A stretch of DNA of 64,000 nucleotides from Phorcus lineatus (Eukaryota; Mollusca; Gastropoda; Trochida; Trochidae), in NCBI GenBank assembly GCA_921293015.1, contig OV121093.1, positions 25,864,622 through 25,928,621 of the forward strand. Reading direction: 5' to 3'. A model generated the notes under the pieces. That model was not told where the DNA came from. It ran no database searches and saw only the letters and a list, made by a program, of their open reading frames with translations. A program made the translations under genes and the position numbers. Shown here one piece after another: positions 7,641 through 48,200 of the stretch (position 1 is the stretch's first letter; each line of letters opens with the position of its first letter).

Positions 7641-9805
7641 TTTACTTTTATATATACCAAGTCGTACACATTGTTCCAAACATTTTCTCCATTAACCTCA
7701 CTTAAAGACAGCTATAAGTGAAGGTGGTTTCAGATGCGCAGCTGCATCTCTCTGAACCAGTCAAGTTTTCAGAGACTCCATCAACATTTTATGCAAATTT
7801 AAAAAGTTTTAACCTTTTAGAAATTTATTTTGATTTGTAAATAAAACTACCGCGTTTATATAATGTGTTGATATTATGAAAATGTTTCTCTCGACAGTCA
7901 ACAGTTCATGTTGATCTGTCAGGTGATTAAAACATTTGTTGCTGTTTGGGCCTTTTATATCATTTCAATTTTCTATTGCAGCTATTGTTTATTTCAAGTT
8001 AGTCACAGAACTTGTACCTCCGAGCTTTCACAGATATTGTTTACTAAATGAAATTATGTTTGAACAAAATTAATGTCTGGATTTTAATAACATCCAAACA
8101 AAGGCTCTCAGGCCTTTATTTCTCATAACTTTTATGTCAACATCAAATTCCCGGATTTTTAGTTTTACGAATTTATTAAAAATTAAAATAACTATCAGAA
8201 TTAACATGAAATTGAAATTGTCATTGTCCCAATGAATATATATATATATATATTTTCAAACAACGGCGAAATTTTAAGTTATTTACGATGATTAGTTGTC
8301 AAAAGAGATTCAACATCAGCTAGCACTTCAAATTACATGAATACATGAAAAGCTAAAATATCCCTGCAAACATTTTGATCAGTAACATCACATAGATATA
8401 TCGCTTGTTAACACTGCTTAATGACCTTTCGGCTTGTTGGGACAGTTTCGATTTCCTATCACAAGTTGTAATGATATTCCTGACAGGTTTATCGTGCGTC
8501 CACTTCTAGTTTATGGATGATGTAGACATTTAGATGGAAATAGATACCATTTTATTCAAGTTCTTTTTAAAAACATCGCAACCATCGTTTCAAAGGGAAT
8601 ACGAAAGCCAAACTAAACCAAACCAAATAAATGATACATCTTTCTTTATTGAAACAAGAAGCGGAAAATATATATTTACATCACATGATGTCATCCAATA
8701 ATCACTCTTATAACACGCATGTTGTATATCTGCTACCAGAGTAGCTAAATTATAACTTGTGACAAGCCTCCCAAACGAAGATCGATATCCTTTACCGCCG
8801 CGGAGACGTAAGTATGACGTTTTCTCCTCTGCGTAAGTAACACTGACGTTCCATATTTTGATTCAGACACTTAATGAGAGCCAACATTTGCTTAAATTTA
8901 ATTTAAATGGACAATGCATTCGGAGCACTAAATTCGCGACAAAAATAAGCAAATCAGTCAAGTTAATTAAAGAAGGGACCTTACGAAAATCATCGTTTGA
9001 CAATTCTAAATATATTCCCATCATCTTTAAATTTGCTAATAATATTATATATTATATAATATTTGCTCAATAATCAAAAACATTTTTACCTTTATCTTTT
9101 AAGTTGAGACTGGTTAATAAGCTGACTTGAAATAAGTTGAGGCTGTTGATTACGCTTCATTTAAAATGTTTCAGTGATATACGATTGAATGAACGGTCAA
9201 CGCTTCAATACTTATCGATATGGCGTTGCAAAGGAAATTGCTCAAATTGAACAATACATGTGTTGGTATTACCTCTCGATATCTATTTCATTTCTCCTGC
9301 TATAACATTTTCTTGATAAGACAGGACATCTTAACAGGTTTATTCGTATCAAACGGTATCATATAACCTTGATCTAATTCGCTTGATCTCTGGGGCTTCT
9401 CTGTATTTTCCTAGATGGTTATCGGTTTGTTTGGTAGCCAGGTGGTTTCTTGCAGTACATTTTGAAATAATAGAATATGTAACCAGCATTTATTATCTTT
9501 CGATTTTCACTGTATTTTAAAGTCATATACCATATCATTTTATGGTTGCATGTCGTTTACCATGAAATGGTAAACATAAAATGTGTGGCACTGGAATGTC
9601 ACACGTATTTTGTATAAATATCATGTGCAATGTGTTACAATTACACAATAGTTAGTATGATGACATATAATAGCCCATGAAATATATAATATGATGTTTA
9701 TTTAACTAATATTGAACACATTTGATTCAGAGGGGTTTCATAATTAGTCACGAGGAGGAAACGAGAACGAAGAGCACGTGTTGGACTCCCCCTGCTGTCA
9801 CAACA

Positions 9806-9854
9806 ATGAGGTTGTCAAGAGGACTTGTGGTCCTAGTTATAAGCGCCGTGTTTG
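9806..9854 (+). CDS. EGF-repeat receptor exon 1 (signal peptide)
   Basis: 49 nt coding the signal peptide. The donor after TTTG is GTAGGT and the phase is 1. The same exon with the same length and donor is present at 32177-32225. Confidence 0.85.
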
Positions 9855-12800
9855 GTAGGTCGTCGTACACGTGTACTATACCTTCTACAGCTGAATACCA
9901 AAAGTTTGTTTACATACCTGAATATACTAGTGCAAATATCATGTAATTAGAGATGCATTTGAGCTATCGTAGCGTTGCAAAAAAGAAACGTGTGATATTG
10001 AATTTCCAATACACATATGCAGATCCATTATTCTTTAAGGCAAATGTTAATCGTACCCCCACAATTACCCGTAACAATTTTGGCAGGCCATTGAAGTGAC
10101 CAGGGGTCAAGATTCCGAAAACACTATTTTGTTATTTTTCTCCATATAGTCCTTTATAGTTATCAATTTTTTTAAATTAGTCACGTTTGTTCCTTAGCAA
10201 AAAGTCAATGTGATAAGTTGGTTTAATCTCAGAGAGTTGATATTGAACATTTCATTTGACATTTAACGAAATCGAAATTTTGAAAAAAATGACCTATTCT
10301 GTCTTATTCATTGTGCCAAACTTCGAATTTTTGCAATAGAGACTAGACGATCCCAAAATAAGTTCAAGAATGGCTTTTTCACACATGGACAGTGGGTTAT
10401 TCTTCTATTATTATAATTATTATTAGTTTTTCTATTGACGTTGAAACGAAACTCACATTACATGATATTTCGATTCAGTGGTAATTGAACAAACTTTTGT
10501 CATTATAGAAGGATCATAGTTGATTAAAGTTTTCTTCTTTAAAAATGATAATTAAAAGTAGTATAATTTAATTTCAGACCCTTTTCTTGAATGTGATCAT
10601 CCGGGTAACTTATACATTCTGTATAAATTATTTACGAATATAGAAACAATGTTAAAGGGCCACAGAGTATTTTGTTTGAGTCAATTATGTCAAATGGTTT
10701 TACGGAAAATCGAAAAATCAGTATTTTAGCGCTCATTATATCCGTATAGGACAATTTACACATTTGGCGTGATTTGTGATCGAAAACGGGACAATGACGC
10801 GCCAATGACTGAAACGTAATTTTGGTAACGAATTTACAGCAGGCACAAAGACAAATATTGATTTGTAGTGTTTAGTAGGTCTTTTAACTAGTGTACATGC
10901 ACATTTGACGCCGAATTACGCCTTCCTAACATTTATATGGCTGTGTTTTATCTATCAAAAAAATAATCATTTTGACATTTTAGAGATAAAGATGTAAGTT
11001 ATGAGGCATGTTTCACAAGCACGTATTGCTCAAAACTATAACAAATGTATTTAGGTTTTGGATTGAGAGACTTACATCGATATGTCTAGTTACCGATAAG
11101 AAAAATCAATGTGAAATGTGTCTGAGATAATTTCTATGAATATTTTCTAACTTTTGATGTTTGTTTTGTCTAAGAACGCATTATTTCGTAACTCATGATA
11201 AACTTTCAGGATCCAGTTCCTGTCCAGAGAACTGTAAGATGCTTCCGAACTCTGATTCTCACATGTGTGGCTCACTCAGAGGAACCTGCTCTCTGGGATG
11301 TATACCAGGTTACTATGGAAACACATGCAACAAGATGTGTGATGTTAACTGTGAGAATAAGTCATGTCAGCAGAGAGACGGTTCCTGCATATGTTCATCA
11401 GGATATACCTTCACCGACGGCTCTTGCAAATCCATTAAAGGTATAGCGTTAAATATTCTACGGTTTCACTTCGTTTGTCATGACGTTCACTTTGCAAGTA
11501 CGTCTGGCACTAGTCCAAGTGATTTATGTGTTATGATTTAGTTTCTTATTTGCGTTTTTTTTCAAAGACACCACTGCTCAGGGACTTTCCCGAATAAGAG
11601 GTGTCTGGTTAAGATATTTGTTCATTTCTATGATAAATAGTTAAGCTGATTCCATGATGGTGTTGATATATAGAATAAAAATTTCTCAAATGTGAAAATT
11701 AAAAGTATCTTAAATGAATATGCGTTAAGATTCGAACATAAGGCACGTAATTTCATTCACTTGGCTACTGGGGCACATGCTGTATGATTGCTTCTCAGTA
11801 ATATCACTGCATTCATTCTTCCCGTGACTTAAAACCACATGCAGAATATGAGTAGCATGATCAGAACATCATTAATACAGGTTGATGGCTGTCAATCGCA
11901 TTGCATCGCTAAGAAGGTGTTGTTTTGACACATTTATTATGGTCAGAGCTAAGTGTCCATTTCCGATGTGTGAGAATCGAGATAAACATTTCAAATGCCA
12001 ACAATTTCAAGTCTGTAGAATATATAGAAAAATAAAGATTTACTTTTGTTAGAACAATAGTTGAAAAGTTCGAGCTGAGATTGAATACCATTTCAAAGTT
12101 CAAATTTAATGACGTGTTAAAAGACGTGTACTGTTGTTTTGATCTTTTAACAGCAGCAAATCATTCATTAGCCCCACCTCTATTTGATTTACCTCTATTT
12201 GCTTATTGAAATATGTGAGGCAGATACGAAATGAGTGACCTCCTCCGAACAGGAGGATGTAAACAGTATAGGGACCAGTGTTTTCAAGTGCAAATTGTTG
12301 TAGCATTTAACATTCAGATATGAAGAGAACTAAGTGAAATAATAAATTTTGTCACAAATTCATTGTTCATTAAAGCACAAGAGATAAAAAGCTTCCTTTA
12401 TTTTTTCCCTTTGTCGTCTGCTACTTAAGAACAAGTTTCATTTGTTTATCAATCTTTTATATAAATAGTTATTTATTTCAGGATCCTGGTTTGTAATATC
12501 GGTATATATATTTTCATATCCATGAAACATTGTTCAAGACGCAAACACACCAAATCGATTACTTTCCAATTGATAATGTTAACTTTCTTTCAAGTTATTT
12601 CTCCCCTGCACAATTTTCAAGATTACAAAGACGTCACAGCATAAACAGAAGAACAACTTTCTTCATGAGCAGTACTGAAGACTATTCAACACTCTGTTCA
12701 AACCATCAAATTTATATGAAATGAAATGTTTTAAAATGACTCACTTTTGTTGATGATTTGTTTTTACGGTCATTGCTAGAATGATAGGTTCCTATCCTGA

Positions 12801-15800
12801 AATATTTCTTCTGACGCTAGTTTGCGATGCTCTCACCACGATATAAATTGGAAGTGTGATTAATCATTTTCTGAACTAAAATGCGGTAATAATGTAAGCA
12901 TTTGTAATCGCTGTGTTTGGAAACAAGCGACAGGTAGGACACACCTGTTTCTCCAGATGCTCTAAAACAACCATCCCAAATGGATACCATGTATGTTCGA
13001 CTAGCGCCCATCGAAGCACACATTCATGTGATGGGGAATATTACATATAATAATATGGCATTGAAAATCAATGATTGAATTATTACAAAAACGCAACAGT
13101 TGTCCACTTATTTACAGTGTGATTGAATAATGTTATAAATACTATCAACAATCTTGAGCCTTGAAGTGAATCACAAAGACTGACAGACAACAATCCTTAT
13201 TTTCCACTTTCATTTCCTTGTTAGAATATTGAAGCCCAACTTTCATTACGTACAATCGCTGTTCGAAAGTGTCGTGTAGTCGTCGTGTTGTTATTGTGTC
13301 GTTATTGTGTGGTCATCGTACAGTGGTAGGGTTGACCGTGCTATTAGTCCAGCACGATTCCTACAAATCTCAAGTATGTTCCTTATTTCAGAAAATCGTT
13401 CTGTGGGTGTATCGATCGTGTAGTGATTGTGTTGTGATTGTGAAGTATATGTGTTGTGAATGTGTTGATCGTGCTTCAGTCTTGACACGATAACAGAACA
13501 ACCACAACACAACCACAACAAAATCGATAAACTGTCCCTCTTGAAATCGTACTCTTATCGTACTCATGTTAACTTAACACTTGTAGTGCTAAACTTTAAG
13601 ACCACGATGACAACTCCTACAAAACACGGAGTCACACGGTTAATATACGATATGGATACAATCGTTACACGATATTGGATTAAACTTGCATCAATAAGAG
13701 AATTTCCCATCAAAATGTTATCACGTGTGCTTCGCTCTGTCTTACTTACAGTCAACATGTGAGCACAAACGATGGTAAGGTATTGATGGTAAGCGAGGGA
13801 GACCAGCGATTCACAACCTACTGCCGACACTTCTCTACCCCTGCATACTAACTGTTTTGTCCAGTTGTAACTCCGTGATTAATTTCTACACAACCAAGGT
13901 ATGATAAAATGCAACAAGAATTCATCACAAGCAAAATTATGTAGTATAGCTCATCAAAAGTATGGTAGACCTATAAACTGTATACTGCAAATGTCGCATA
14001 TCAGAAAAATGAGTGTTGCAGCTCTTCATGCTATTCTAAAGATTATCTGCATAGGACATCACGTCAATGTATAATTCTCATACGCAATCGTACGAAACTT
14101 CAAATAAGTAAATGGAAATCAACTCATGAACACGTGATTTCACTGGTAAATGGAATATAATGTTTGTTTTGAATTGTTCTCTGTCAGAATGAATCGCAGG
14201 TTTACTTATTATCAAGAAATTAAACTGAATCATTTTGCACAAAGCATGTAATAATGCTAACAATGGGGATACTTTTGCGCTGGACTCGCACGACATTGCT
14301 CTCTCAGATCAGGCCAACTGTAAAGTGAAAACAATTCATGACCTTGAAAATGGTAATAACTGCGCTCAATATTCATATGAATATAGATATTGGGAATGTG
14401 ATAACCAGCATGTAGAAATGCAGATGTTTTGTCATTTGATGCTTTGAATCAGACGGAATGCCTGTAAAAAACCATCTGTAGATATTTCACAAAGCCAGAA
14501 GATGAGAGAAAAATTCGAAGATAATGTTAGCTTTATTAATACTTGCCCTCATATCTTCGCAATGGCATTCTATTTCATAGCTGCTATACATCACAGGATG
14601 AATAACAATTCTAAATTGATCATTAAAAGCAATGTTTAACCTTTTTTGCCTTTGGACAAATTATTTAAAATCGTGCATTACTCTTCATTATTCTTGATTG
14701 CATCGTGAAAGCGTTGTGTCAAGTTTGTGATGATTATGTTCTGACCGTGATAGAATCTTGATCTTATAATGTAATGATTGTACCCACATCGTGTACCTCA
14801 ATAAAGATACCGTTTCCGCATCACAGATCGTTAAAGTTACAATATGATACCAGCACGACCGAATCATAATGTGACTGTAGTGCAGTCGTGCGTAGTATGA
14901 GTTGGGCTGAACAGTAACTGGTTGCTAGAGGGATGTTGATCGGAACCAAAACCATGCTATCCAAAACCACTGTTAGCAAGCTCCAAATTGGTAAAGAAGA
15001 AATAAATTTTTCTTCATCTGTGAAGAACCTTGGAATTTATCTCCAATCAAACTTCAACTGTGACAGACATGTGACTGATTTGTGTAGCAAGTGCAACTAC
15101 CATTTGCACAACATCGGGAATATACGTCACTTTCTCACGCAAGAAGCTGCCGCTGCCCTTGTCAGAACATTCGTCTTGTCCAGATTGGACTATTGCAATA
15201 GCCTTCTTCTGAGTGCAAATAAGGATCTTATCTTTCGACTCCAGAAGATACAAAACAAAGCTGCCAGAATAGTGACCCTCAGATCAAAGTATGATCACAT
15301 ATTACCTATCCTCTATATTACCTATTGAGTATAAAGTTCTCTCCCTTACATACCAGTGTGTTAGTGGATCAGCCCTAGAGTACTTGTGTGAACTCATCAC
15401 TGAGTATAAACCAAGCCGTACTCTTAGATCAGAAGCACAGAATCTTCTCCAGACACCAAAATGGAAGCTCAAAGTTTTCGGACAATTAACTTTCAAAAAC
15501 TCTGCAGCTACGCTCTGGAATGCTTTGCCAGATGACATCAGATCATGTCCATCTCTTGAGAGTTTTAAAGCCAGTGTTAAAACTTACCTTTTCAGGAAAT
15601 ATTACCCATAGGCACATTTTCATGTACAGCGCTTTGAGCATATGTCATATGGATAAGGCGCTTTATAAATACTCATTTATTATATTATATATATTCCCCC
15701 CCTTTCATTCTGAATAACAATGTCCAAAGATAAAACAATGTTATAATATCAATACATATAAAAAGGTGATTTTGTTTTGTCATTTTTTTTCTATTTGGGC

Positions 15801-17402
15801 CAATACCCATTCTACAAAGTAGTTTTTCAGGATAACAGAATGAGAAAATTGTCTCGTATCCAAATATCGTTTTTTGACGCTTGTTTATACATTCAAATTT
15901 TGCTTCCCTAGAACATGAACATTAGAACTTGCATTGTATACATTTCTGTCGTAACACCATAATAAATAATTGAATATGTAATATTTCAATTTCACCAGGT
16001 GTGAAATGTGGATCCAATGATCACTGTTTGCACGACACATGTGTATCGGCTGGCAGAACCGATTGTTTCGAAGGCTGTAAACCTGGATGGTACGGACATT
16101 TTTGTCGGCAACCTTGCTCTGCCCACTGTTTCTGTGACAGAGAGTCAGGGAGCTGCACAAGCTGTATACCAGGCTGGTATGGGCTAGAATGTGGGTCACC
16201 CTGTAGTCCGGGTTGCTTCAACAAGAAATGTGATAGGAGAGGGACTTGTGCTGATGGCTGCACAACTGTATTATATGGAAAGACATGTGATCTGAACTGT
16301 TCCGCACACTGTGTGTCTGGATGTGATCAACTGTCAGGAGAGTGTGTCAAGTGTGAAGCAGGTCGGTATGGCTCAACCTGTGAGTGCAGTGCCGGGTGTG
16401 CAGGGACAAATGATAAGTGTTACAAAGATGGAACTTGTATCAAAGGGTGTAGGGATGGTTACTATGGAGAGACGTGTGAGTCCATATGTCCAGATCAATG
16501 TAATATCGGCGTGTGTAACATTACCACCGGAGTATGTACCAAGGGATGTGAGAGTGGATACTTTGGATCATTCTGTAACCTCACGTGTGAGAACTGTCAA
16601 GGTGGTGACTGTGACGCAAGTGAATGTGCAGGTAATTGATATATTTACTCACTATAAAAACTTTTTGAAATGTCAAATATAACAAACTGAAGGCAAAAAT
16701 GTTACATCTTTGTATATTTAATGGTTAAACACTGTATCTATTTGCAAATGACAGTAGAATGTACACTCTTCCAGGTACAGATTTCCCAGGAACATGGATA
16801 CCGTTCATCATAGGAGGAGGCTTATTTCTCATTTTTGCAGTGCTTGCTGTCTTCATGACCTTCTGCCTGAAAGGGTCAGTATCTAAAACACGTTTCAATC
16901 AAATAATCATAAACACCTATGATGAGAGAAAGTAGAAGAGTGGAGTGCATCCTTTAACAAGACAACGTATTTTTTTTCATTTTACTACTTTACATTCCAT
17001 AAAATAAAGATTGTTGTGTGTCACTGGTATCACATGGCATTCTTCAGCCCATGTTTTCAAGTCCTTTTGTCAGTCCCTTTTCGGGTCCTTTTGTGAATGC
17101 TCTGCTTGTGTTGATGTGGCAACATTTGGACAAATGTTTACTTACATCTTTTCTTACCAAGCCTCAGGATTACGATCTAACTTTAATGCATAGGCTACAA
17201 CGGCGATAAGATCGCGTGTTTTTTGCTGACGTTTAGTTGCTCACTTTGTTATCTATTATTTCTGTGTTTATGCAGGATTCAATGGGTCCTCAATGTCGAT
17301 GTAAGACGTCCTCCCTCTGCTGTTCAAGATGCCAGTCCGGTTGCTGCTCCTGGAAATGTTGAACTTAAAGGCACTAGTGCACGTTTTTCGGGCTCAAACT
17401 AG
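9806..17402 (+). CDS. MEGF/SREC-like EGF-repeat transmembrane receptor (5 exons)
   Basis: Joining 9806-9854, 11210-11440, 15999-16631, 16775-16874 and 17276-17402 gives 379 codons plus stop, with GT-AG introns and compatible phases (1,1,1,2). Residues 1-17 form a signal peptide (MRLSRGLVVLVISAVFG). Residues about 18-304 are Cys-rich MEGF/SREC-type EGF-like repeats with repeated GWYG/GYYG and TC motifs. Residues about 312-336 are one transmembrane helix (FIIGGGLFLIFAVLAVFMTF), followed by a 43-residue cytoplasmic tail. I chose the ATG at 9806 because it starts the hydrophobic segment and is conserved in the second copy; an upstream in-frame ATG at 9722 would bury the signal. Family members bind particles, lipoproteins or apoptotic cells, but no ITAM or NPXY motif is visible in this tail, so signalling is uncertain. 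A poly(A) signal follows at 17456. Confidence 0.87.
11210..11440 (+). CDS. EGF-repeat receptor exon 2
   Basis: 231 nt, phase 1 to 1, after acceptor aactttcag and before donor gtatag. It codes SSSCPENC through a complete EGF-like unit ending TDGSCKS. Its symmetric phase allows duplication or skipping. Confidence 0.85.
11725..11785 (-). repeat. degraded tRNA-like (SINE-like) remnant in intron 2
   Basis: On the minus strand the segment contains a GTTCGAATCTTAAC-like B-box, and it corresponds to the better-preserved copy at 34111-34178. Presence in both receptor copies dates the insertion before the duplication. Confidence 0.3.
12100..12310. repeat. intron segment shared by receptor copies
   Basis: Contains the pattern gaacaggagg and gaccag(t)...aacattcagatat. 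Related sequence occurs at 34670-34860 and, shorter, at 36905-37060, showing at least three copies of this part of the duplicated block. Confidence 0.6.
14933..15715 (+). mobile_element. 5'-truncated CR1/L2-like non-LTR retrotransposon end
   Basis: An open frame from 14933 reads LQIGKEEINFSSSVKNLGIY, then RLDYCNSLL and LQKIQNKAARIV, the C-terminal region of a CR1/L2-type ORF2 after the catalytic core. It breaks near 15325 and continues in another frame as HxIEYKVLSLTY-like sequence, LWNALPDDIR and LKTYLF-like sequence, stopping at 15611. The 3' tail has agcgctttgagc...aaggcgctttataaat, typical of these elements, followed by an AT-rich tail. Only the last ~0.8 kb is present, so it is a dead 5'-truncated copy inside intron 2 of the receptor gene. 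The exact clade would need an alignment. Confidence 0.8.
15999..16631 (+). CDS. EGF-repeat receptor exon 3 (main EGF array)
   Basis: 633 nt, phase 1 to 1, acceptor tttcaccag and donor gtaatt. It codes about five EGF-like units from VKCGSNDHC to CDASECAG. Compared with the copy at 35170-35764 one EGF unit between CPDQC and CTKGC is missing here, fused as CPDQCNIGVCNITTGVCTKG. Confidence 0.87.
16775..16874 (+). CDS. EGF-repeat receptor exon 4 (transmembrane helix)
   Basis: 100 nt between acceptor ctcttccag and donor gtcagt. It codes TDFPGTWIPF, then the hydrophobic helix, then the stop-transfer CLKG. Phase 2 at its end is required by the frame of exon 5. Confidence 0.8.
17276..17402 (+). CDS. 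EGF-repeat receptor exon 5 (cytoplasmic tail)
   Basis: Acceptor ttatgcag, then IQWVLNVDVRRPPSAVQD and a tail ending RFSGSN before TAG at 17400-17402. It is short and Pro/Ser-containing, without a known signalling motif. Confidence 0.75.
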
Positions 17403-27454: not shown

Positions 27455-27792
27455 TAATATTTGCTATTTGCGTTCTTTCAACCATAACTCATTTACTTTA
27501 TGTTTTAATCAAATGTAACGAATAATTCATGTACACTTCATAAGTGATTATGGGCTTGCACAAACTCATTTATGTTTCTCCACATGGTGAATTATTTCAT
27601 GGATCTTTTTTCCGTATAGCAGACCTCGTTTTGAGAAATCAATTGATTTGAGCCCTATTTCAAAGGACCACTTTAACATTCTTTCTCATATTTCTAGCAT
27701 TGCTATACGTTTGAAGTTAGTATGAAGTAGTGAAACATTACAAAGTGGATACTTTCGGCTGTCTTAAAAGTGTACACTTGTAAAATATAAGT
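27455..27792. repeat. duplicated flank, left part, homologous to 40915-41330
   Basis: Shares tgttttaatca, cgaataattcatg, tttctccacatggtgaat, gagccctatttcaaag, and agtgaaacatta.aaagtggatactttcggctg with 40990-41310, then is interrupted exactly where the TIR element begins. Confidence 0.75.
27787..27792. repeat. target-site duplication, left copy (ATAAGT)
   Basis: ATAAGT directly precedes the left TIR and is repeated directly after the right TIR at 30953-30958. The paralogous uninterrupted site at 41326-41331 has one copy (ATGAGT). Confidence 0.75.
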
Positions 27793-27895
27793 GTATCATC
27801 CCAACTTGGGATCGCGTCCCATCTTAAGATGGGACGCGTCCCAACTTGGAATTCCAAGTTGGGACGTCCCATCTTGAGATGGGACAGCGAATACT
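27793..27895 (+). repeat. left terminal inverted repeat with three stacked palindromes
   Basis: 27816-27835 is a perfect 20-bp palindrome, 27838-27865 a perfect 28-bp palindrome and 27866-27885 a near-perfect 20-bp palindrome, plus CCCAACTTGGG at 27800-27810. All are built on half-sites GTCCCAACTT or GTCCCATCTT. Such arrays look like binding sites for a dimeric protein or strong cruciform/hairpin formers. Confidence 0.85.
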
Positions 27896-30850
27896 TTAAC
27901 ATGTTCATAATATTCTTATTCTACTGTTGAATTTAGTAATAACATGATAACATGTATCATTTAGATAATCGCTTTAAGGCCCTCGAAAGATATTTTGATT
28001 TTATGTTGATTTTCATGACTTATTGGCTATATCTATCTCTCATCGCATACGAGTCTTTCATCATAGTACAATACGATTTCAAAAGTAATTCTTATACAAA
28101 ATTTTATAAATTATTTCATTATATTCTTAATTTTTTTAAATTGTGACAGCATGTTAAGCAAATAAAAAAAATATATACACTCAAAACCCACTCTTAGTGA
28201 ATACCATGAATGCTAATGCCTTCTAATCAGTTCAATTTCTTACATATAAACCGTTCCGTTAAGCATATGATTTCAATGTACTCATTGTGTTTGATAGTCG
28301 AATCTAAGACTTTATGTTTCTTAAACATAATTCACAAACACTAACCTATAAGTGGTGTTCCGTCAATGCTTATAAGATGTCCAGTAAATAAATCCAGTTA
28401 TGCCTCCTCCTATTTCCGATCGAACCTGATCTGATCAGTGTCGTGGTGCAAATGGCAAACATACCTGCTTGGTAGTTCAGAGAAGGGTGGAGGGGGGAGA
28501 GGGGGTCCGAAAGAAGGTATTTTGGTAAACATCCGGTTCGGTTATGACACTAATACCTGTGTGTCACCTTCCAATTAGTGACAAGAATGGGTACCAATTG
28601 GACATGAGCATGCTTGTAACACTAAGGTACACGCCGAGCGTTTGTTGTTTTAGTCAATGATTATCATTCTTATTTATCAAGGCATTATCACTGATAGGAA
28701 GCAGACGTGATCAAATGTTTATGTTTATTGTTATTGTTATTCGATGAAAGTTTTTTGGCCAAACTGAATATATTCAAAATATCTTTTTCATAAACAGAAC
28801 GATTATCATATAAAGTAACCAAAATGAAATCTAACATCATTAGAAATACAATATTTCAACTCATTTCTTATCAATACTACAAGAAGATTATAAACGGACT
28901 TTGTTGACTTTGAGTTCATTAATAAACTTTGTTTACCTTCACAAGATTTTTTGACACAAACCAGGGTACAGAGTTGAGTAAAATTATTTTTTTTCTACTT
29001 AACCCGAGGTAACATATGATTTCGATCAGTATGAAAAGGTTGTTTCTATATGTATCTAGGCTTGTTAGAAGCGTTGAATTGAGAGAATTGTTGTGTGTTG
29101 TTACTGCTAATAAGTTAATCAACTGATCAACTAAGTCAAATAAGATGAGTAGGTGAGAAGGAAGAATTACATTTCAGTGTAATATTGTTGTTTTACAGCT
29201 GAAAGTTTACTTAACTAATCGTTTTGTTATCTTAAACATGTCCCCCCCCCCCCCCGAAAAAAGGCATTAGGTTTCTAAATACACATCAACGAAGTTTTAT
29301 TGATATACTAACAATTATCGAGTTATTTTGTGCTGACATACATGTTCTCATGTGTTATCTTCAGAGGACTAAATGATTCATATTGTTATTGCTTATACAA
29401 ATTTGATATAGAAACTGTCATTTCTTATACAAATTTGATATTGAAACTGTCCTTCTTATTGTAAAATATTATCATATTTCATTGTATGAGAATATGCAAT
29501 ATGTGTCTACCGTACATTTGGTACAAATTTTAGGAAAGAGCTTTAAAAGTCGTTTGGTATCATTTATGAAATGATAAACAGATATTATTAGGAATTCGTC
29601 AACACTCTAGATCTGTGACAAAGATTTGTCGCCGTTAAGATAGATTTTAGTATATTGATATGATTTACCAGGGAATATTCAAGCCCTAAGTTGGCACTAG
29701 TAGAAAATATCTAAAATGTTGGGGAACCAGACTTTGAAAATAGGAACAAAAAATGACCTAGAAAAGTTACTGAACTCGATTCACAATTATATCATGAAGT
29801 CTGATCGATTTGAAATTTCATAAGCACATTCATTTTATAACGACTGCCAAATAAACAAATGCTATACATGTACATGCAATATCAGTGTATATTTTTTCGA
29901 AATTGAATAACGATTTGTCACACGTCACTCACTTTAATTTGTTTGTATATATTTACATATGTGATTATATTGGAGCAGCCTTAAAATAAGCTCTTTTGAG
30001 CTTGTTGGCCAATCCCTTCATGTACTATATCATGAATAAATATGTTTAAAGCATAATAGGAACTTTAAAATTCTTTTTACATTTGATACAACCAACCAAG
30101 TCGCCAAGTAGATAAACAAGATGATAATTTGTTAAAACAACATGGGCTTATGGTGTCTCCATATGTTGTTTTAGCCTAACACTACCTACGGTGGGCAAAT
30201 TGGTGCCCAATCATTCGTCCTCTGACATGCCAAGCTGTCACATTAACACATTCAGTGTATTCAGCGCTGGATTGTAACGATGGAGAGTACCTTAATTTCT
30301 GCTTATAGAAGGTTTTTGCATGGATTATTCATTTCTTTGTATCAGGTACGTTTTTTAAATATATATTTTTAAAAAAGCAATTTATCACTAGTGTTGTAAA
30401 ACTTGGATCTGTATTAGAATAACTTCATATCTTTGTTTGTTAAAAGTTTATACCACCTTTTTGTAAAGAAACTAAGAAACAAATATGTCTCTGTGAAATG
30501 TGGAGCCGTTTGGTTTCTCTCTGTTTACAGCTGTTCGATCTACGCATGTATTGGTCGTTTGAAAAATGATGAAAACTATTATCTAAATATAAATCTCTAT
30601 ATTGATCTGATTTTGTGATGTCGCTTAACAAATGTGATTCAATAAGTAATCAAATGGGACTTTGAATAATTGTTTGAGTAGTGTTGAATCGTTCGTACTC
30701 GATAACAGATGAAACTGAGTCAGAAAGTGAAGTAAATGAACATCAAATCAAATTTTCTTCGTAGATGTGAAAAGAATAGAACAGAATTATCTAAAAACAT
30801 GTTTTACTGACACAATTCATTATAAAATATGAATATTATTAACATGTTTT

Positions 30851-30952
30851 AGTATCCTCCGACCCATCTCAAGATGGGACGTCCCAACTTGGAATCCCAA
30901 GTTGGGACGCGTCCCATCTTAAGATCGGGCGGATCCGCAGTTGGGATGATAC
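30851..30952 (-). repeat. right terminal inverted repeat
   Basis: Reverse complement of the left TIR with the same order of palindromes. The outermost palindromes carry a few mismatches (for example GATCGGGC against GATGGGAC). Confidence 0.85.
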
Positions 30953-31490
30953 ATAAGTACTTCCGGTTTAGAATATTCTTCCTGGTTTCATCGTTCCTTA
31001 AGAATAGAAAATATTCCTTGCAGCATACGGATCATTCTAAAGAAGTACAAACTCTAATCTTTACTCAAAATGTAGACTTAAATTTGATCACCATCCTTAT
31101 AAAGAACAGAGAAAGACCTAATTTTCTCATCTTTTTCGAAAAAGTAATTAACAAATGTGGGTATCATATATAAGATAACACTTTATTACCCATCAAGTTA
31201 AAGATAAGGCTTCCATTAGTCTATTCATCCCACCCGACAACATTTATTCATTGTCTCTCTGCTTAATTCTAGCCTCTCTTATGTAATTACCAAACAGTGA
31301 AAGAATTACATTTCACTTAAATCGAAACAGGAGCAAGAACGACTTTGCCTGTTCTAAAAGCACCTGCTTACAAAAACAATATGAACTAAAGATAAGTTAA
31401 ATGCTTGACTGCATATGGAACCGACGAAGCTGACTACAAACACTACTTTTGTTTGTTTTATGTCTACATTACCAACAATATTATTGCATA
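30953..31490. repeat. duplicated flank, right part, homologous to 41326-41950
   Basis: Shares agtacttccg.ttt.gaat, gataacactttattaccca, cgacaacatttattcattg and aaatcgaaacaggag with 41330-41800, in the same order. Confidence 0.75.
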
Positions 31491-31784
31491 TATGTTTCAT
31501 ATACCAAGTCGTACAGATTGTTCCAATGCATGAGATCTTCTCCAGAACCTCACTTTAAGTCAGCTATTGGTGAAGGAGGTGTCAGATGCGCAGCTGCATC
31601 TTTTGGTATACAGACACCAAAATGTCACAGACTCCATCAACATTTGGTGCAAATTTAAAAAGTTATCTTTTAAAGATAACCTTTTAAAAGATAACCTTTG
31701 ACTGGAAAATAGTAACAACCGCGTTCATATAATGTTTTTATATTGTGAAAATGTTACGCTCGCCAGTCAACAGATATTCTTGTC

Positions 31785-31851
31785 AGATGTACAAGATATA
31801 CAAGAAATACAAGTTATACAAGACATTATACAAGATATTATACAAGATGCA
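31785..31851 (+). repeat. degenerate tandem repeat (TATACAAGA-type)
   Basis: Repeated acaagatata / acaagaaata / acaagttata / tacaagacat units. It lies in the 5' flank of copy B and is absent from copy A. Confidence 0.6.
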
Positions 31852-33644
31852 TATATTGGTCTAGCACATCAGTATTGTAGCTGGCAATTAATACATTTGT
31901 TGTGGATTTCAAGCTGGTTCACGATGTTAAACGGATAACAAAAGGTAAGGGAGACAACATCAGCTGCCACTTCATAGTACATGGTTACCCTAAAGTTTGA
32001 AATATCCCACAAACATTTTGATCAGTAAAATTGCATAAAATATCGATTGTAAATGATATTTCGTGAACTTAAGACTTGATCATCCCATCATTTGTGAGAG
32101 GTTTCATAATCAGACACAAGGAAACTAGAACGAGGAAAATGTTTGTAAGACTCAGTCTCCCCCTGCTGTCACAACGATGAGATCGTCAAGCGGACTCGTG
32201 GTCCTGGTTATCAACGTCGTGTTTGGTAGGTCGTCGTATACGCGTACGTGTATCCTACAGCTGCATACCAAAAGTTTGATCACATACCACTGTAGTAGCA
32301 TTAATGAAATAACTTCAGCAAAACTGGCAATGAATCACTTGTTAAGTGTAAAATAACCAGGCTTTAACTTATATTGGAATCGTCTTTTGACATGATGAAA
32401 TAGAAGGGATCATATTTTTTAAATTCCGATTTCCTGAAATATCAATTAAGATATTCCGGTTCCAATCTGTACGAATGCTACATACCAAATTAAATGATAT
32501 TTACACTTGGATACGTGAACAAACTTTCGGTATGAAGCTGTACGTTCTATATTCTAGTGTCTTGATTATAGTTACGCGTTAAGTTGATCAGATTCGCATC
32601 CTTTTGATTAGACATTGACTTGAGCAAATTGTCATTTCTGATCTTTTTAATGTATTAACATGAACATGGTAACATATACATTCTGTTGCCTATGGACATT
32701 GATGTACTTTATATGTTTATTTTATGTTTCATGTTTTATGTTTAAAATGACATATGGTCTTTGTATGTTTGTTAGGTTTCTGAAAAGAGCATCAATGTAA
32801 TGTGTGCAAGCAAATATAGCTTAATCCCTGGCCTTCTATACATATGCTCATTGGCCAAAGGGAAAAGTACATTGTAGATAAGTGACTATCGTTTTTGGCA
32901 CGTCGGCCACACTTTAACGGTCATTTGAATTCCATTGACATGACCCTTAACATTTGAAATAGTTTTCAGATAATTTGGGCAATGCATATTTGAAATGTAA
33001 AATGGCCTATTTGTCGCACCCGATAAACTTTTTATTTTATATCAAAATCTCTGATACCGCTTTGAGATGAAACAGGAATAAACATGACATGTTGATTATA
33101 CAGATTAAAACGACATATATAGAAACTTTTTCCTATCACATCAATCATTACTTGGTTTATCAATGTCAGGTTCCGTTTCATCTTTTCTTTGTGTCCGATT
33201 TCGCCATCATAGGAACCTTTTTCACTAATTAAATACGGTACCTTATTCGTCAATTTGGTTCCGTTTTCGCCAAAGCTTTTTGCAGCCGTTTTTTCAAGGT
33301 TCTGTTTTAGTCACAACCCAAATCAGCGTTAGAGATGATCTTTCAATAAAACAATTTTGGTACAAATGTGGTATAATTCCCTAACGTAAATTAACAATTG
33401 AATATTGAAGAGAACATCTATGATCCAATTTAATTCTCAGGCATTGTTCAAACCGAAAAAAATGTTTTGAAGTTTTGGATTGAGACACTAAAAAGCGATA
33501 TATCTATCTACCAATAAGAAAAATCTTTCTGAAATGTGTCTGAAGTTATGTTTAAACTTTTAATGTTTTGCTTTCCATCGACACTTGATGGAATAGGACG
33601 TTTCTTTCAGTATTTCATGAGTTTGATATGTGATACACTTTCAG

Positions 33645-33864
33645 GAACCCGTCCCTGTCCAGAGAACTGTAAGGTACCATGGAACTCGGATCTCTCTTCT
33701 TGTGACAAGGAAGCAGAAGGCTGTTCTTTATATTTGAAAGAAACACATGCAACAAGGCGTGTGATCTTAACTGTAAGGGGAATTTATGCCAGCAGCGAGA
33801 CGGTTCCTGCCAATGCAAAAATCAGGATATACCTTCGTCGACGGCTCTTGCTTATCAAATACAG
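33645..33864 (+). pseudogene. pseudogene exon 2 with two indels
   Basis: 220 nt against 231 in the intact copy, with acceptor actttcag and donor gtaaag kept. The deletion removes the GCIPGYYG region; the insertion lies just before the SGYTF-equivalent codons. Confidence 0.8.
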
Positions 33865-34110
33865 GTAAAGCGTTAAATAATTTACGGTTTCACTTAGTTT
33901 GTCATGAAGTTCAACAACCAAATTCTTATAAATTCTAATCTAAAACTTTATATACTCCTGGTATTACTACCAGTAATAAAACTGTTGTGATAATATTACC
34001 TTATTCAGATATTTTTGAAGACTCAACTGCTCACTAATTTTCCCTTACATGCTTGTTTTGATATACAGAAACACAATGTCTCAAATGTGAAAATATTTTT
34101 AATGAATGTG

Positions 34111-34178
34111 CGTCAAGATTCGAACATAAGACCCTAGATTTAGAGGCCAGTCAATTCATTCACTAGGCTCCTGGGGTA
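34111..34178 (-). repeat. tRNA-derived SINE-like remnant
   Basis: The minus strand has an A-box-like GCCTAGTGAATGAAT and a B-box-like TTATGTTCGAATCTTG about 35 bases apart, as in tRNA-derived SINE heads. It does not fold as an intact tRNA by eye. Confidence 0.35.
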
Positions 34179-35169
34179 TATTTTGTCTTTTTGATTGTAA
34201 ATGATATTCCTGCATTCATTCTTCTCTTGACTTGAAGCCACATGCTGAATAAGAGTAGTTGACCAAGTCACCTTCAATACAAGCTGTCGGCAATTTTCCA
34301 TCGCATTGCTTACATGTGTAGTAGAGATGTTTTTACACGGTTTTTTTCGTGTTAGAACCCACATGTAGATTTAAAACATTATGTATGTGATCGCAATTTG
34401 ATTGAATATTCCATTATATATAAATATTTACTTTTGTTTACACGACAATTGACAATATCCAACTTAAATAGAAACCATTTCAAAGTTCAAATTATTGAAA
34501 CGAAACCTTTGTCTGAAGTTTGGATTAATAAAAACTTCATGAACAAGGCAGGAAACCTTTAGGCTTTCTAGATAACAAAACAACTCATCAAAAGACAGTT
34601 TTAAGTTTTCCGCGAAATTCTTTGGGGAAATGAACTTGATTGCCAAAAAGAAATATACTATTTTCCGTTGATTTTATCTTAGGACATCAGCTAATTACCT
34701 ATTAGCCAAACCCATTTGTTGGTTGACCCCTATTTGCATATTCAAATATGTAAGTCGGATATGAAATGAGCTACCTCCCCAGAACAGGAGGTAGCAAATA
34801 AGATTGGGGCCAGTTATTGTTAAGTGAAAATTGTTTTAGCATTTACCATTCAGATATTGAGCAAAGCATTTGTCAAATATAATGTTTTTCTTTTTATATT
34901 TCATTCCTTTTGTCGTATGCAAATAAACTAAAGCAAGTGTCATGTGTGTACCAATCTTTCATGTTAATGGTAATTTCGTTCAATATTGGTATTTGCATAT
35001 CGATTACTTCCGTTCTTCATTGTTCATTGTAAAAAAGGAGAAATTAAAGGTATAGATAAATTTTCATAGATATATGTTCTAAGGACCATCAGATCGATTA
35101 GGTTCTAATTGATAATGTCAAAAATGTTGTCAAGTTCTATGTACTTCAACGACCAAGGAGTATTGTTTG

Positions 35170-35764
35170 GATTATTGGATGGTTCGGAAGGTTTTGCCAG
35201 CAACCTTGCTCTGCCCATTGTTTCTGTGACAGTGGGTCGGGGAATTGTTCAAGCTGAATACCACAGAACAGGGACTTGTGTTTATGGCTGCATAATTTGG
35301 ATCATTCGGAGAGAAATGTGATCTGTAGTGTTACGCACATTGTGTCTCCGGATGTAATCAGCTGACAGGAGAGTGTGTCCAGTGTGAAGCAGGTCGGTAT
35401 GGTTCAACCTGTCAGTCCGAGTGCAGTGCTGTATGTTCAGGGACAACTAAGAACTGTTACAGAGTTGGAAATTGTATCAGAGGGTGTAGGAATGGCTTCT
35501 TTGTAGAGAAGTGCGAGTCGACATGTCCGGATCAATGTTATGAAGATAGGTGTGATATAGGTGGAGGTTGCAGCACCTGTAAGCATGGTTTCTATGGTGA
35601 AAGGTGTGCCAAGGTGTGCGGGAAGTGTACAGACAGAGTCTGCAACGGTATAACCGGTGAGTGTACCAAGGGATGTCAGAGCGGGTCCTATGGATCGTTC
35701 TGTGACCTGACATGTGAGGAGTGTGATGGTGGCGACTGTAAGAGATAGACAGGGAAGTGTATAG
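35170..35764 (+). pseudogene. pseudogene exon 3 (EGF array, stops)
   Basis: Cys spacing and motifs (CEAGRYGSTC, GSYGSFCDLTC) match copy A, but several in-frame stops interrupt it. Confidence 0.85.
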
Positions 35765-40914: not shown

Positions 40915-41950
40915 AGACATTCTTTAATGTTTGCTTTTTGCGTCCTTAACAATGACAACGCCATCGTTTTGTTCTGGAACCGAAACTCATTTAATTCATG
41001 TTTTAATCAATTACATATTATCATAAACGAATAATTCATGTTTCTCCACATGGTGAATAATTTCATCTATCACTCTTCCGTATAGCAAACCGCGTTTTGA
41101 TATATATATATATATAAATCAGGAGACCCTTTGATCTGTTTTGTTATATATGTACACTGAAAACTTTTGAGTGTCAATTGGATTGAGCCCTATTTCAAAG
41201 CACCGCTTTAAAATGCTTTAGAGAACCTTTCTATCACTGCTTTATTCGTTTGTAGTTAGTATGAGGTAGTGAAACATTATAAAGTGGATACTTTCGGCTG
41301 TTTTAAAAGCGTACATTTGAGAATTATGAGTACTTCCGCTTTGGAATAGTCTTCCTGGTCTAATCATTCCTCGAGAATAGAAAATGTTCATTTTAGCATT
41401 CTGATCATTCGGTAGTGGTACAAACTCGAGTCTATAATCCACATGTAGACATACATTTGATCACCGTCTTTATAAGTAACAGAAAAAGACCTAATTTATC
41501 TCATCTATTACAAAAATCAATTTTACAAATGTGAAAATGAATTATGTCTAGATTTTTTATAAAGGAAATAATTCCACGCGGATTTTTTTCTTTGATTAGT
41601 TTTACGCATATCACAATAGAGTATCATTGTTATGATATAAGATAACACTTTATTACCCACAAAGTTACAGATAAGACTTCCATTAATCTATTCATCCCGA
41701 CCGACAACATTTATTCATTGTCTCTCTGCTTAATTCTAGCCTCTCTGATGTAATTAACATACAGTGAAAGAATTATATCTAAGTTAAATCGAAACAGGAG
41801 CCAGAACGTCTTCTTAAAGCACCTGCCTTCAAAAACAATTTCAACCAAAAATATGCTAAATGCTACTTCTTAAATTTTTACTGCATATAGAACCGACGAA
41901 GCTGCCTACACTACATTTATTTGTTTTATGTCTACATTACCGACAATAGT
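40915..41950. repeat. duplicated flank, uninterrupted copy (block C)
   Basis: Homologous to 27455-27792 joined to 30953-31490 without the 3.16-kb insert. It ends about 280 bases before exon 1 of the adhesion GPCR, so the 5' flanks of the receptor pseudogene and the GPCR share origin. A short TA run at 41097-41116 is private to this copy. Confidence 0.75.
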
Positions 41951-45200: not shown

Positions 45201-48200
45201 TGTTATATTATCATATTCAAATGTTGCTGATAACATAGCAACTCTCATTATGAGTGAAATAGCGACCTAAGCGCGAGACGTTAGCTGTGATATCGCCCGC
45301 GAGCGGTAGCGAGAGGGCGATATCACAGCTAACGCCGAGTGCTTGGTCGCTATTTGCCATACACAACAAGGCCAAGGTTATATTCAATACCTTTCATTAA
45401 CCTTTCATTTTGGAAAGTGAATAATTTGAATAAGAATATCAATTGATATTTTCTTGACTAACGTTTATAAAGACATAATGATGTAATAACGTACAACTAT
45501 AGAGGTTATATGAGGATACTTTGTATCCGGTTACAGAGGGGAAATTTCTTCCCGAGGTACGATACTGATAAACATGCGAGGCTCTGCCGAGCATATTTAT
45601 CAGTATCGGACCGAGGTAAACAGTATTATAAAACATAAAACGAAACAACGAAATGACAATGTATAATACATGTATACCAGATGTAGTGTTATATTGATAT
45701 CATACTGATATCTTCCATTTCATATACGCGATATGAGTTACTTTTGATGAATACTCTACATGTAACAATTTTTCTCAAAGACAGTGTGTATGTATGTATG
45801 TATGCATGCATACATACATACATGCATGTACGCATACGTAAATATGTAGCTCTATCTGCTGCCAAACGACAAAGTTTGGTTAATCCGGCAAGCAGTTGGA
45901 CATAACACGCTGCAGAAGGTCATCCCGGACATGGCCAAGGACGCAGGACTGACTGGACTACAGCAGCCACAACACTCTTCAGAGCTGGTGTAGATGAACA
46001 GTTAATAATGGCACAATCATGGCACAAACCGAACTCTTTCAGGTACGTAATGGGATACAATGATGAATAAAATGAATGAATAAAATATTTGTTACACAAA
46101 TGTCATCATGTTTCTTTCTAAAGACTGATTCAACAAACTGTACTTAAAATGTACAAAAATAGTTCACTCATTTCAATTTTCTCAAAGTATATAGGTCTAC
46201 ATATGATTTTGTTTCTCAGCAGAATTCTAAACGGTGCCAAACGTGTTCACCCAACGCCAGCAGCTGACCAAATTGACCAGCAGCCTGACCAACAACCTGA
46301 TCGCGGTACATGTTGTACTAGGGTTGTGACACCAAACGTTGATCTAGGCGATTCGCATTACACCTCTGTAAACTGTAACGTGACTTTCTTAAACAAATAA
46401 ATATTCGCTTAGGTTTATTGTTATCATTTTTAGAAGATATGAATGTGGAAACTTAAATGATTAAGCAAAGCCCTGGTTTGTGAATGTGATAAAACAAGAA
46501 TGCTAAAATAACGTGCCTTTATCGTACTTCATTATATATAAACAACACCGCAATTGCTATCTATTGTTATAAATTACATGACAGAACTAATGTTATGGCT
46601 CCTTGCTTCCTGACACAAACTCTTCAGCAAGTGACTAAATCTATCATATCCGCAAAATCAAATGCTCACAAAAAAAACGAAGTTCGAAATCTCACATGTT
46701 AAATACATGTACTATACTTCAAACATAAAACTGTTATAACTTCTTCTATCTGACGTCACTGTCACAGTGGCGCAGTTGATAAGTTGTTAGGCTACAAATC
46801 AGTAGATCGGTGGTTCGATTCCATTCCTTGCTTGACAATGTAAAATATTAGATTATAAAATATTTCTTTAATGAGGTATGATATCTGATATCATGCGGTT
46901 AGATTAAGATATCACTCAGATATCGTACCCTATGGTGCAGATACACGAAGATAATTACACCCATATAACGAGACCGTGTTGTGTATCTCTTATTACCCAT
47001 CATCACATTGAACACGGATAAACAGTTCTTGCATAACTTCATTAATCTGCGTAGTATGGAAATAATAGCACTATAGCACGGATTCTTTTAGCTCAGATTG
47101 GATAGTTTAAGGCATATAAGGACATTAGGACTGACTTTAGCTTTCTGTCGATGCAGTTAAAGACGTATCATACTTTACATTGACTTGCAATGAATAATGA
47201 GACAATTAGACGACCGAAGTAAGCTAAGCTAAGAGATATACAAAATCTACAGTCAGCTGCGCACAAAAAGGATTAATATGGACTGTTGATAACGGCTTAA
47301 CTAATGTATTGTGTCAAGCTTTTAAATTTACCGTTTTCATTTCCTTTCCAGACGATGGGGGCCAGGTGAACCCAACAGTGGGCGTGGCCGAAGACAAGAG
47401 CACTGTGTGGAGCTCAACTACAAGGGCTTCCTCAACGACCAGGAGTGTGACGAGTTGAGAGGCTTTGTCTGCGAATCGCATGATAGTAAGTTGTCGTTGT
47501 TGTTGTTGTTGTTGTTGTTGTAGAATGATACATTATTCAACACTTTCTTCCATGATCTGCATAAAAATGTTTGATTCAGGAGGGATTGGACGAGACATTT
47601 ATTCATAATTCATTTCACCAAAAAGGAGTTCATAAGCGACCAGGTGTGTGACTCCTGTGGAGCTAGTAGGTTGACTTTAAAGCTCATATGTACATGTGAT
47701 ACCTCGCTAGGATGCTTATCGAAATTCAATGTAGATGACAACTCTGAATATCTTTATTCGTTCACTACACTTTCGACAATGATACTTGATTTCTAAGGTC
47801 AATTAATAAACATAATTTTAAAGTTCCTTTTATTCATTGTTATTTTAACTTGTTAATGGTTGAGTATCAAAGTCGCTTTCGCTCGTTTTATACTCTATCA
47901 ATAACTCGTTTGATAAAAATAGTATACAATTTATCTGTGCTTTCATTTGGGTACTGCCAGTAATATGCAATGATACTTATTCATAGAATATACGAGGTAA
48001 ATCAGGCTGAAGAAATCAATGGACTTTAGAAGTCTTGATGCTTAATGTAGCCTTTTGAGCAGTATGGACACATTATGTAAAAACGTATACAAGATAGTGC
48101 TTTAATACTTGCAAATGATACCATTCCCTTCCAGGAGGGGTGTATTTTTTTATTCGATAATACAGAGTGAGCTTTTTATGCCATGGTCGGCCACTATCAT

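What the first reader, a model, noticed from the sequence alone, without database searches (positions are those of the whole stretch)
27793..30952. DNA transposon with ~102-bp TIRs made of stacked perfect palindromes
Each TIR contains three adjacent palindromes (20, 28 and 20 bp on the left) using two alternating half-sites, GTCCCAACTT and GTCCCATCTT. The element is bounded by ATAAGT duplications, and its paralogous empty site is in the same window. It has no transposase. The dense palindromes suggest a dimeric transposase with several sites per end, or hairpin-forming ends, and the architecture does not obviously match a family I know.
Basis: partly seen in the sequence, partly recalled or inferred. 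Interest (0 to 1): 0.8.

Follow-up and report, generated by a model that had tools for sequence, protein, structure and literature searches.

The report
Jumping gene with palindrome-packed ends
This is one copy of a common, protein-less jumping DNA element whose two ends are packed with near-identical palindromes that barely change between copies, which suggests they are the docking sites for a moving enzyme made elsewhere.

Summary
The observation largely holds. A DNA transposon lies at 27792-30953, with ~142-bp inverted ends (outer ~94 bp palindromic), an empty site in a paralogue at ~41327, and no recognisable coding sequence. The window's assembly (958 Mb) holds 469 exact copies of the left-end 23-mer.

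The duplication was misread: it is 4 bp (TAAG), not 6 bp (ATAAGT), and the termini are TGTATC...GATACA. Of 26 copies with both ends read, 20 have an exact 4-bp duplication. The target is a palindrome, RTR-4 bp-YAY; 12 of 20 left ends sampled by the 23-mer alone follow RTATA. TGT..ACA ends, 4-bp duplication, RTATAY target and TIR length match published Ginger2. The fifth base (T, where Ginger2 has a purine) does not, and no transposase was found, so I call it Ginger2-like and do not file it there.

The palindromes reuse one half-site, TCCCA(A/T)CTT: eight on the left, six on the right, allowing one mismatch. The left/right difference is fixed in the copies read. The right end varies at 6 of 1680 positions where interiors average 95.2% identity. 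Best reading: arrays of dimer-binding sites for an integrase-type transposase supplied in trans. The partner was not found.

The parts
27788..27791 (+). left copy of the 4-bp target duplication TAAG, preceded by ATA (RTR) at 27785-27787
27792..27933 (+). left terminal inverted repeat; starts TGTATCATCCC; outer 94 bp palindromic, then ~48 bp AT-rich
27798..27812 (.). outermost overlapping palindromic site ATCCCAACTTGGGAT (A-type)
27813..27838 (.). 26-bp perfect palindrome, two TCCCATCTT half-sites (B-type)
27837..27866 (.). 30-bp perfect palindrome, two TCCCAACTT half-sites (A-type)
27866..27885 (.). 20-bp near-palindrome, B-type, central two bases unpaired
27934..30811 (+). interior with no Pfam match in six frames; relatives of 1.5-3.7 kb carry the same interior, some with deletions or inserts
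30812..30953 (-). right terminal inverted repeat; ends GGGATGATACA; two fewer half-sites than the left; outer part reads AACTGCGGATCCGCCC in all 23 copies aligned
30880..30909 (.). right-end A-type palindrome (13-bp stem around a 4-bp centre)
30954..30957 (+). right copy of the 4-bp target duplication TAAG, followed by TAC (YAY) at 30958-30960
41327..41330 (+). empty paralogous site (TGAG in place of TAAG, single copy, no footprint seen)

Best explanation
A non-autonomous cut-and-paste DNA transposon moved by an integrase-type (DDE, Ginger2-like) transposase made elsewhere. Shown: ends TGTATC..GATACA, 4-bp target duplications, a palindromic RTR-NNNN-YAY target, hundreds of copies, near-invariant ends and a fixed left/right difference. 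Inferred: a dimeric DNA-binding domain of the transposase sits on each two-fold site built from TCCCA(A/T)CTT (eight half-sites left, six right), the two unequal arrays guide pairing of one left with one right end, the enzyme cuts after the terminal CA, and it joins the ends across 4 bp of a palindromic, TATA-like target.
For: 469 exact left 23-mers, reversed-pattern control 0. Of 26 copies with both ends, 20 have an exact 4-bp duplication, 1 has 5 bp, 2 have 3 bp and 3 (L020, L094, L096) differ at one of four bases. In 44 flanks of 22 copies, T at -2 in 41, purine at -1 in 42, purine at -3 in 41; RTRNNNNYAY at 0.72% of background positions. Left ends sampled by the 23-mer only: T at -2 and purine at -1 in 20 of 20, RTATA in 12 of 20. 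Right end, not used to choose the copies (its outermost 14 bases were used to locate it): 6 changes in 1680 positions in the set whose interiors average 95.2% pairwise identity, 14 in 1932 with three longer relatives added. No Pfam transposase in the window copy, L012 or L016. Ginger2: TGTNR termini, 4-bp duplication, RTATAY target, TIRs ~50-180 bp, one from a sea snail (PMC2836005, section 6 read). piggyBac precedent for a palindromic end motif bound by one domain from each monomer of a dimer (PMC11707139, passages).
Against: No transposase-bearing copy was found. Fifth terminal base is T, not the purine of TGTNR. Three- and five-bp duplications occur. Binding of anything to the half-sites is inferred. 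The 20 fetched copies are all 100% matches to the window's left end, so left-end invariance in that set is selected for. Of 20 left ends in the looser sample, 5 are not colinear over 94 bp.
Confidence: 0.68

Rival explanations
1. The mobilising enzyme is integrase-like but not Ginger2: a separate lineage that converged on, or shares, TGT..ACA ends and 4-bp duplications (for example near IS481EU, or an undescribed group).
For: Fifth terminal base differs from TGTNR; the strictest target positions include a T/A two bases outside the duplication, not part of the published 6-bp RTATAY description; the string 'palindrom' does not occur in the Ginger paper; no transposase found.
Against: RTATAY target and 4-bp duplication fit Ginger2 well. 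IS481EU is reported from parabasalids with duplications around 4, 15 or 25 bp (passages).
Confidence: 0.2
2. The palindromes act as DNA structure: the ends extrude hairpins or cruciforms that the transposase or replication machinery recognises.
For: Each end folds as a palindrome of palindromes, z -10.8 (left) and -8.5 (right), 0 of 200 shuffles as stable. Three of 20 sampled left ends (L031, L043, L045) have lost part of the array, as expected of unstable palindromes.
Against: In the right end the two outer palindromes are broken yet their letters are conserved, which fits sequence reading better than shape. Precise ends and 4-bp duplications need no hairpin.
Confidence: 0.08
3. The half-sites bind a host protein (transcription factor or silencer) rather than the transposase.
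For: Palindromic half-sites are typical of host dimeric factors (recalled); the element has no protein of its own.
Against: Exact half-sites lie only in the outer ~94 bp of each end in the three copies scanned and in the window copy, where a transposase must act.
Confidence: 0.08
4. A 6-bp-duplication family such as IS3EU or Dada, as first suggested.
For: The single window copy shows ATAAGT on both sides.
Against: 20 of 26 copies show an exact 4-bp duplication, and T before GTATC and A after GATAC stand in 20 of 20. IS3EU ends are TA..TA; Dada has no TIRs and targets small RNA genes.
Confidence: 0.01

Closest known systems
Ginger2/Tdd DNA transposons (PMC2836005: abstract, passages and section 6 read)
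   Same: TGT..ACA ends, 4-bp duplication, RTATAY target, TIR of ~50-180 bp, non-autonomous copies known, a sea-snail member
   Different: Fifth terminal base T instead of a purine; the string 'palindrom' is absent from the paper's text; no transposase seen here; left and right ends unequal here (not checked for Ginger2)
Ginger1 (same paper)
   Same: TGTNR-type ends, 4-bp duplication, long TIRs
   Different: Targets CCGG or CCGT; here TATA-like
piggyBac/piggyBat (PMC11707139: passages read)
   Same: Palindromic motif at the ends bound by a domain from each monomer of a dimer; unequal left and right ends; several sites per end
   Different: Termini and TTAA target differ (TTAA is recalled); no sequence relation was tested
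IS3EU/GingerRoot (PMC10045372, passages) and Dada (PMC3706591, passages)
   Same: Eukaryotic DNA transposons with short duplications
   Different: 6-bp duplication and mostly TA..TA ends; Dada lacks TIRs and targets small RNA genes
KolobokP (PMC9587614: passages read)
   Same: Repeats at the ends that carry their own inverted repeats, found in molluscs
   Different: Direct end repeats, 3-5 bp duplications, RR..YY ends. The idea that each end here is itself a mini-element was tried and dropped

Membership tests
Ginger2 | TGT..ACA termini | tested here: met
   T before GTATC and A after GATAC in 20 of 20 fetched copies, counted without asking for those bases; copies were found by patterns that contain GTATC, so variants there would be missed
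Ginger2 | fifth terminal base purine (TGTNR) | tested here: not met
   TGTAT in the window and in all copies read; copies with another base there would have been missed by the search
Ginger2 | 4-bp target duplication | tested here: met
   20 of 26 exact 4 bp; 1 of 5 bp, 2 of 3 bp, 3 with one of four bases different
Ginger2 | RTATAY target preference | tested here: met
   In 19 exact duplications T 17, A 14, T 12, A 14 by column; purine outside in 42 of 44 flanks; RTATA before 12 of 20 sampled left ends
Ginger2 | TIR length ~50-180 bp | tested here: met
   ~142 bp
Ginger2 | transposase with H2C2 zinc finger and DDE integrase core | tested here: inconclusive
   No Pfam transposase in three copies in six frames. 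Genome search for PF00665 scored 150 of 1313 candidates; 49 of these lie on the contigs of the 100 listed left ends (of 469), and none is inside an element
Ginger1 | CCGG or CCGT target | tested here: not met
   criterion
IS3EU/GingerRoot | 6-bp duplication and TA..TA (occasionally TG..CA) ends | tested here: not met
   duplication is 4 bp; criteria
Dada | insertion in small RNA genes, no TIRs | tested here: not met
   142-bp TIRs; no Rfam gathering-score or tRNA match in the window; criteria
Polinton/Maverick | 6-bp duplication | tested here: not met
   criterion

The most novel reading that the evidence does not exclude
An undescribed integrase-type transposon lineage whose ends are unequal arrays of dimer sites (eight half-sites left, six right) that enforce left-with-right pairing, with target choice fixed largely by a T/A two bases outside the duplication: a eukaryotic counterpart of the multi-site, asymmetric ends known from bacterial transposons such as Mu and Tn7 (that comparison is recalled).
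Probability: 0.2. Interest if true: 0.72.

Novelty: new variant of a known kind. Interest (0 to 1): 0.45.

Why it matters
Ends that stay nearly letter-perfect while interiors range from 92.7 to 99.8% identity point to the bases the moving enzyme reads. The family offers hundreds of natural copies, a sharp target rule and a simple half-site, so end recognition by an integrase-type eukaryotic transposase becomes testable in vitro. The Ginger paper calls the excision mechanism of Ginger1 unknown (passage).

Tried and rejected
Six-base duplication: rejected by the copy survey. IS3EU, Dada, Ginger1, Polinton: rejected on duplication, ends or target. Each end as a mini-element bounded by its own copy of the terminal motif: the window's right end matched 8 of 9 bases but the left end only 5; in other copies the inner motif varies, e.g. 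GTATG and GTACC as read from the right ends, so I dropped it. Phage or viral origin: one half-site palindrome hit in viral contigs is a terminator-like hairpin among phage-like genes, taken by eye as unrelated; the other scans of viral contigs, phages and prokaryote genomes were empty. Autonomous partner: probes 1.2 kb inside 40 left ends matched the known interior over at least 100 of 201 bp in 35 of 40. Of the other five, two were fetched: L093 keeps only the first ~600 bp, L094 is a 1138-bp deletion copy. Three (L060, L064, L085) look like LINE tails by eye and were not fetched. Two left ends with an integrase hit 9 and 11 kb beyond them close with a normal right end at 3389 and 2970 bp. 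Copy number of right ends and a genome-wide count of the target rule were asked for and never answered.

Full report
The element. The window carries a 3162-bp insertion, 27792-30953, starting TGTATCATCCC and ending GGGATGATACA. Its ends are inverted copies of each other over about 142 bp, 88.6% identical over 140 aligned bases. A paralogous duplicated block at ~41.0-42.0 kb matches both flanks (80-89% identity) and is continuous through the insertion point, with one copy of the target and no footprint seen. The difference between the two ends (0.124 substitutions per site) cannot be used as an age: it is a fixed feature of the family (below).

The palindromes. The outer 94 bp of the left end contain a 15-bp overlapping site, a 26-bp perfect palindrome, a 30-bp perfect palindrome and a 20-bp near-palindrome. 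The unit is a 9-base half-site, TCCCA(A/T)CTT. There are ten exact copies in the window, all in the two ends, against 1.1 expected. Allowing one mismatch there are eight on the left and six on the right. Because B-type sites flank an A-type site the whole folds as a palindrome of palindromes (z -10.8 and -8.5, 0 of 200 shuffles as stable).

Copies in the genome. The assembly holding the window is 957.8 Mb in 74 contigs. The left 23-mer occurs 469 times exactly, and 0 times when read backwards. One search scored 40 places of 1398 candidates; I fetched 20 of the 39 other than the window, all 100% matches to the window's left end over 108 bp. Two of them (L023, L024) share 25 bp of flank on each side and L024 was dropped from the counts. 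Three longer relatives were added. With the window this makes 23 copies with both ends, 1547 to 3737 bp long. The longest stop-to-stop frame is 154 codons (L016) in the first 20. Three copies (window, L012, L016) were scanned in six frames with Pfam at E<=1. They gave one match, a reverse-transcriptase zinc-binding domain in L016 below its curated cut-off (E 0.016), which I read as a nested LINE fragment.

Duplication and target. With ends at TGTATC/GATACA, 19 of the 23 copies show an exact 4-bp duplication, one 5 bp, two 3 bp, one none. Three further copies with both ends, fetched for other reasons, add one exact 4-bp case (L095) and two that differ at one of four bases (L094, L096); the one without a duplication (L020) also differs at one of four. 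So 20 of 26 are exact. The 22 copies with a duplication give 44 flanks: T two bases outside the duplication in 41, a purine next to it in 42, a purine three bases out in 41. An earlier tally over the 18 copies with 4-bp duplications then at hand (L023 and L024 both counted) gave 36 of 36 at the two inner positions. Counted per copy, 18 of 19 with an exact duplication carry RTR on one side and YAY on the other (L015 does not), against 0.72% of positions in background sequence. A looser sample is 20 of the 100 listed left ends: 18 of 21 on contig C1, leaving out three already in the top 40, and two on C2. It shows T at -2 and a purine at -1 in 20 of 20 and RTATA in 12 of 20.

Constraint on the ends. 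The right end was not used to pick copies, though its outermost 14 bases were used to locate it. In the 20 sequences whose interiors average 95.2% pairwise identity (92.7 to 99.8%) its outer 84 bp differ from the majority at 6 of 1680 positions; with the three longer relatives it is 14 of 1932. In the looser left-end sample, among the 15 of 20 that are colinear (those with at most 3 mismatches over 94 bp, a selected set), positions 24-94 differ from the window at 13 of 1065 and positions 95-142 at 68 of 720. The other five were set aside: L034 is diverged, L031, L043 and L045 have lost part of the array, and L038 has lost its inner edge; in L045 the deletion runs exactly from one half-site to another. 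The left-right difference (TTGGGATCGCGTCCC on the left; TGCGGATCCGCCC on the right) is present in the 23 copies aligned. Near-identical interiors (99.8% for L011 and L017) point to recent movement.

Mechanism. Shown: precise ends, 4-bp staggered joining, a two-fold symmetric target, strict conservation of an array of two-fold sites, unequal ends. Inferred: a transposase supplied in trans binds the sites as a dimer through each palindrome, and the unequal arrays help pair left with right. piggyBac gives a precedent for a palindromic end motif bound by one domain from each subunit of a dimer, and for unequal ends (PMC11707139, passages). Recognition of shape alone is less likely because the right end keeps its letters where its outer palindromes are broken.

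Relation to known families. Ginger2 elements have TGTNR ends, ~50-180-bp TIRs, 4-bp duplications and RTATAY targets, and one is known from a sea snail (PMC2836005, section 6). This family meets all but the fifth base of TGTNR, and the transposase could not be tested. I therefore say it works like Ginger2 and leave membership open. Ginger1, IS3EU/GingerRoot, Dada and Polinton fail tested features (criteria). The string 'palindrom' does not occur in the main texts of the Ginger and IS481EU papers. My paper searches (listings seen) showed no title or start of abstract that describes stacked palindromes at such ends. Two foldback-type transposons, Galileo and Tetris, came up and were not read. Most subscription papers and Repbase are not in the library, so the family may already be catalogued.

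Partner not found. A PF00665 search scored 150 of 1313 candidates, many in frames of over 1000 codons that I take for Gypsy elements. Of these 49 lie on the five contigs of the 100 listed left ends (of 469). Four are within 15 kb of a left end, two of them outside the element's start, and the other two beyond left ends that close normally at 2970 and 3389 bp. The other 369 left ends were not compared.

Noticed in passing
45257-45355: A ~99-bp self-complementary foldback (core GATATCGCCC..GGGCGATATC), possibly a small palindromic MITE of another family.
   Followed up: no
45790-45823: A 34-bp perfect palindrome built of ATGT/ACAT units.
   Followed up: no
7652-16612 and 31499-35739: Paired diverged blocks (matching pieces ~77-91% identical) carrying EGF-like cysteine-rich reading frames (by eye): a local gene duplication.
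   Followed up: no
49998-50155: 33-bp array of 4.8 near-identical units that stays open in a reverse frame (repeated RLPEDINEVFV).
   Followed up: no
L016, L060, L064, L085: LINE-like coding tails (weak zf-RVT match in L016; the others by eye) about 1 kb or more inside several copies of the transposon; L060 and L064 are identical over 147 bp, so either a subfamily carrying it or a recurrent insertion.
   Followed up: partly
L031, L043, L045: Left ends whose palindrome array has shrunk, in L045 by a deletion between two half-sites; natural test cases for how many sites an end needs.
   Followed up: partly
L023 and L024: Two copies 31.6 kb apart on contig C17 with identical 25-bp flanks on both sides, perhaps a recent segmental duplication carrying the element.
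   Followed up: no
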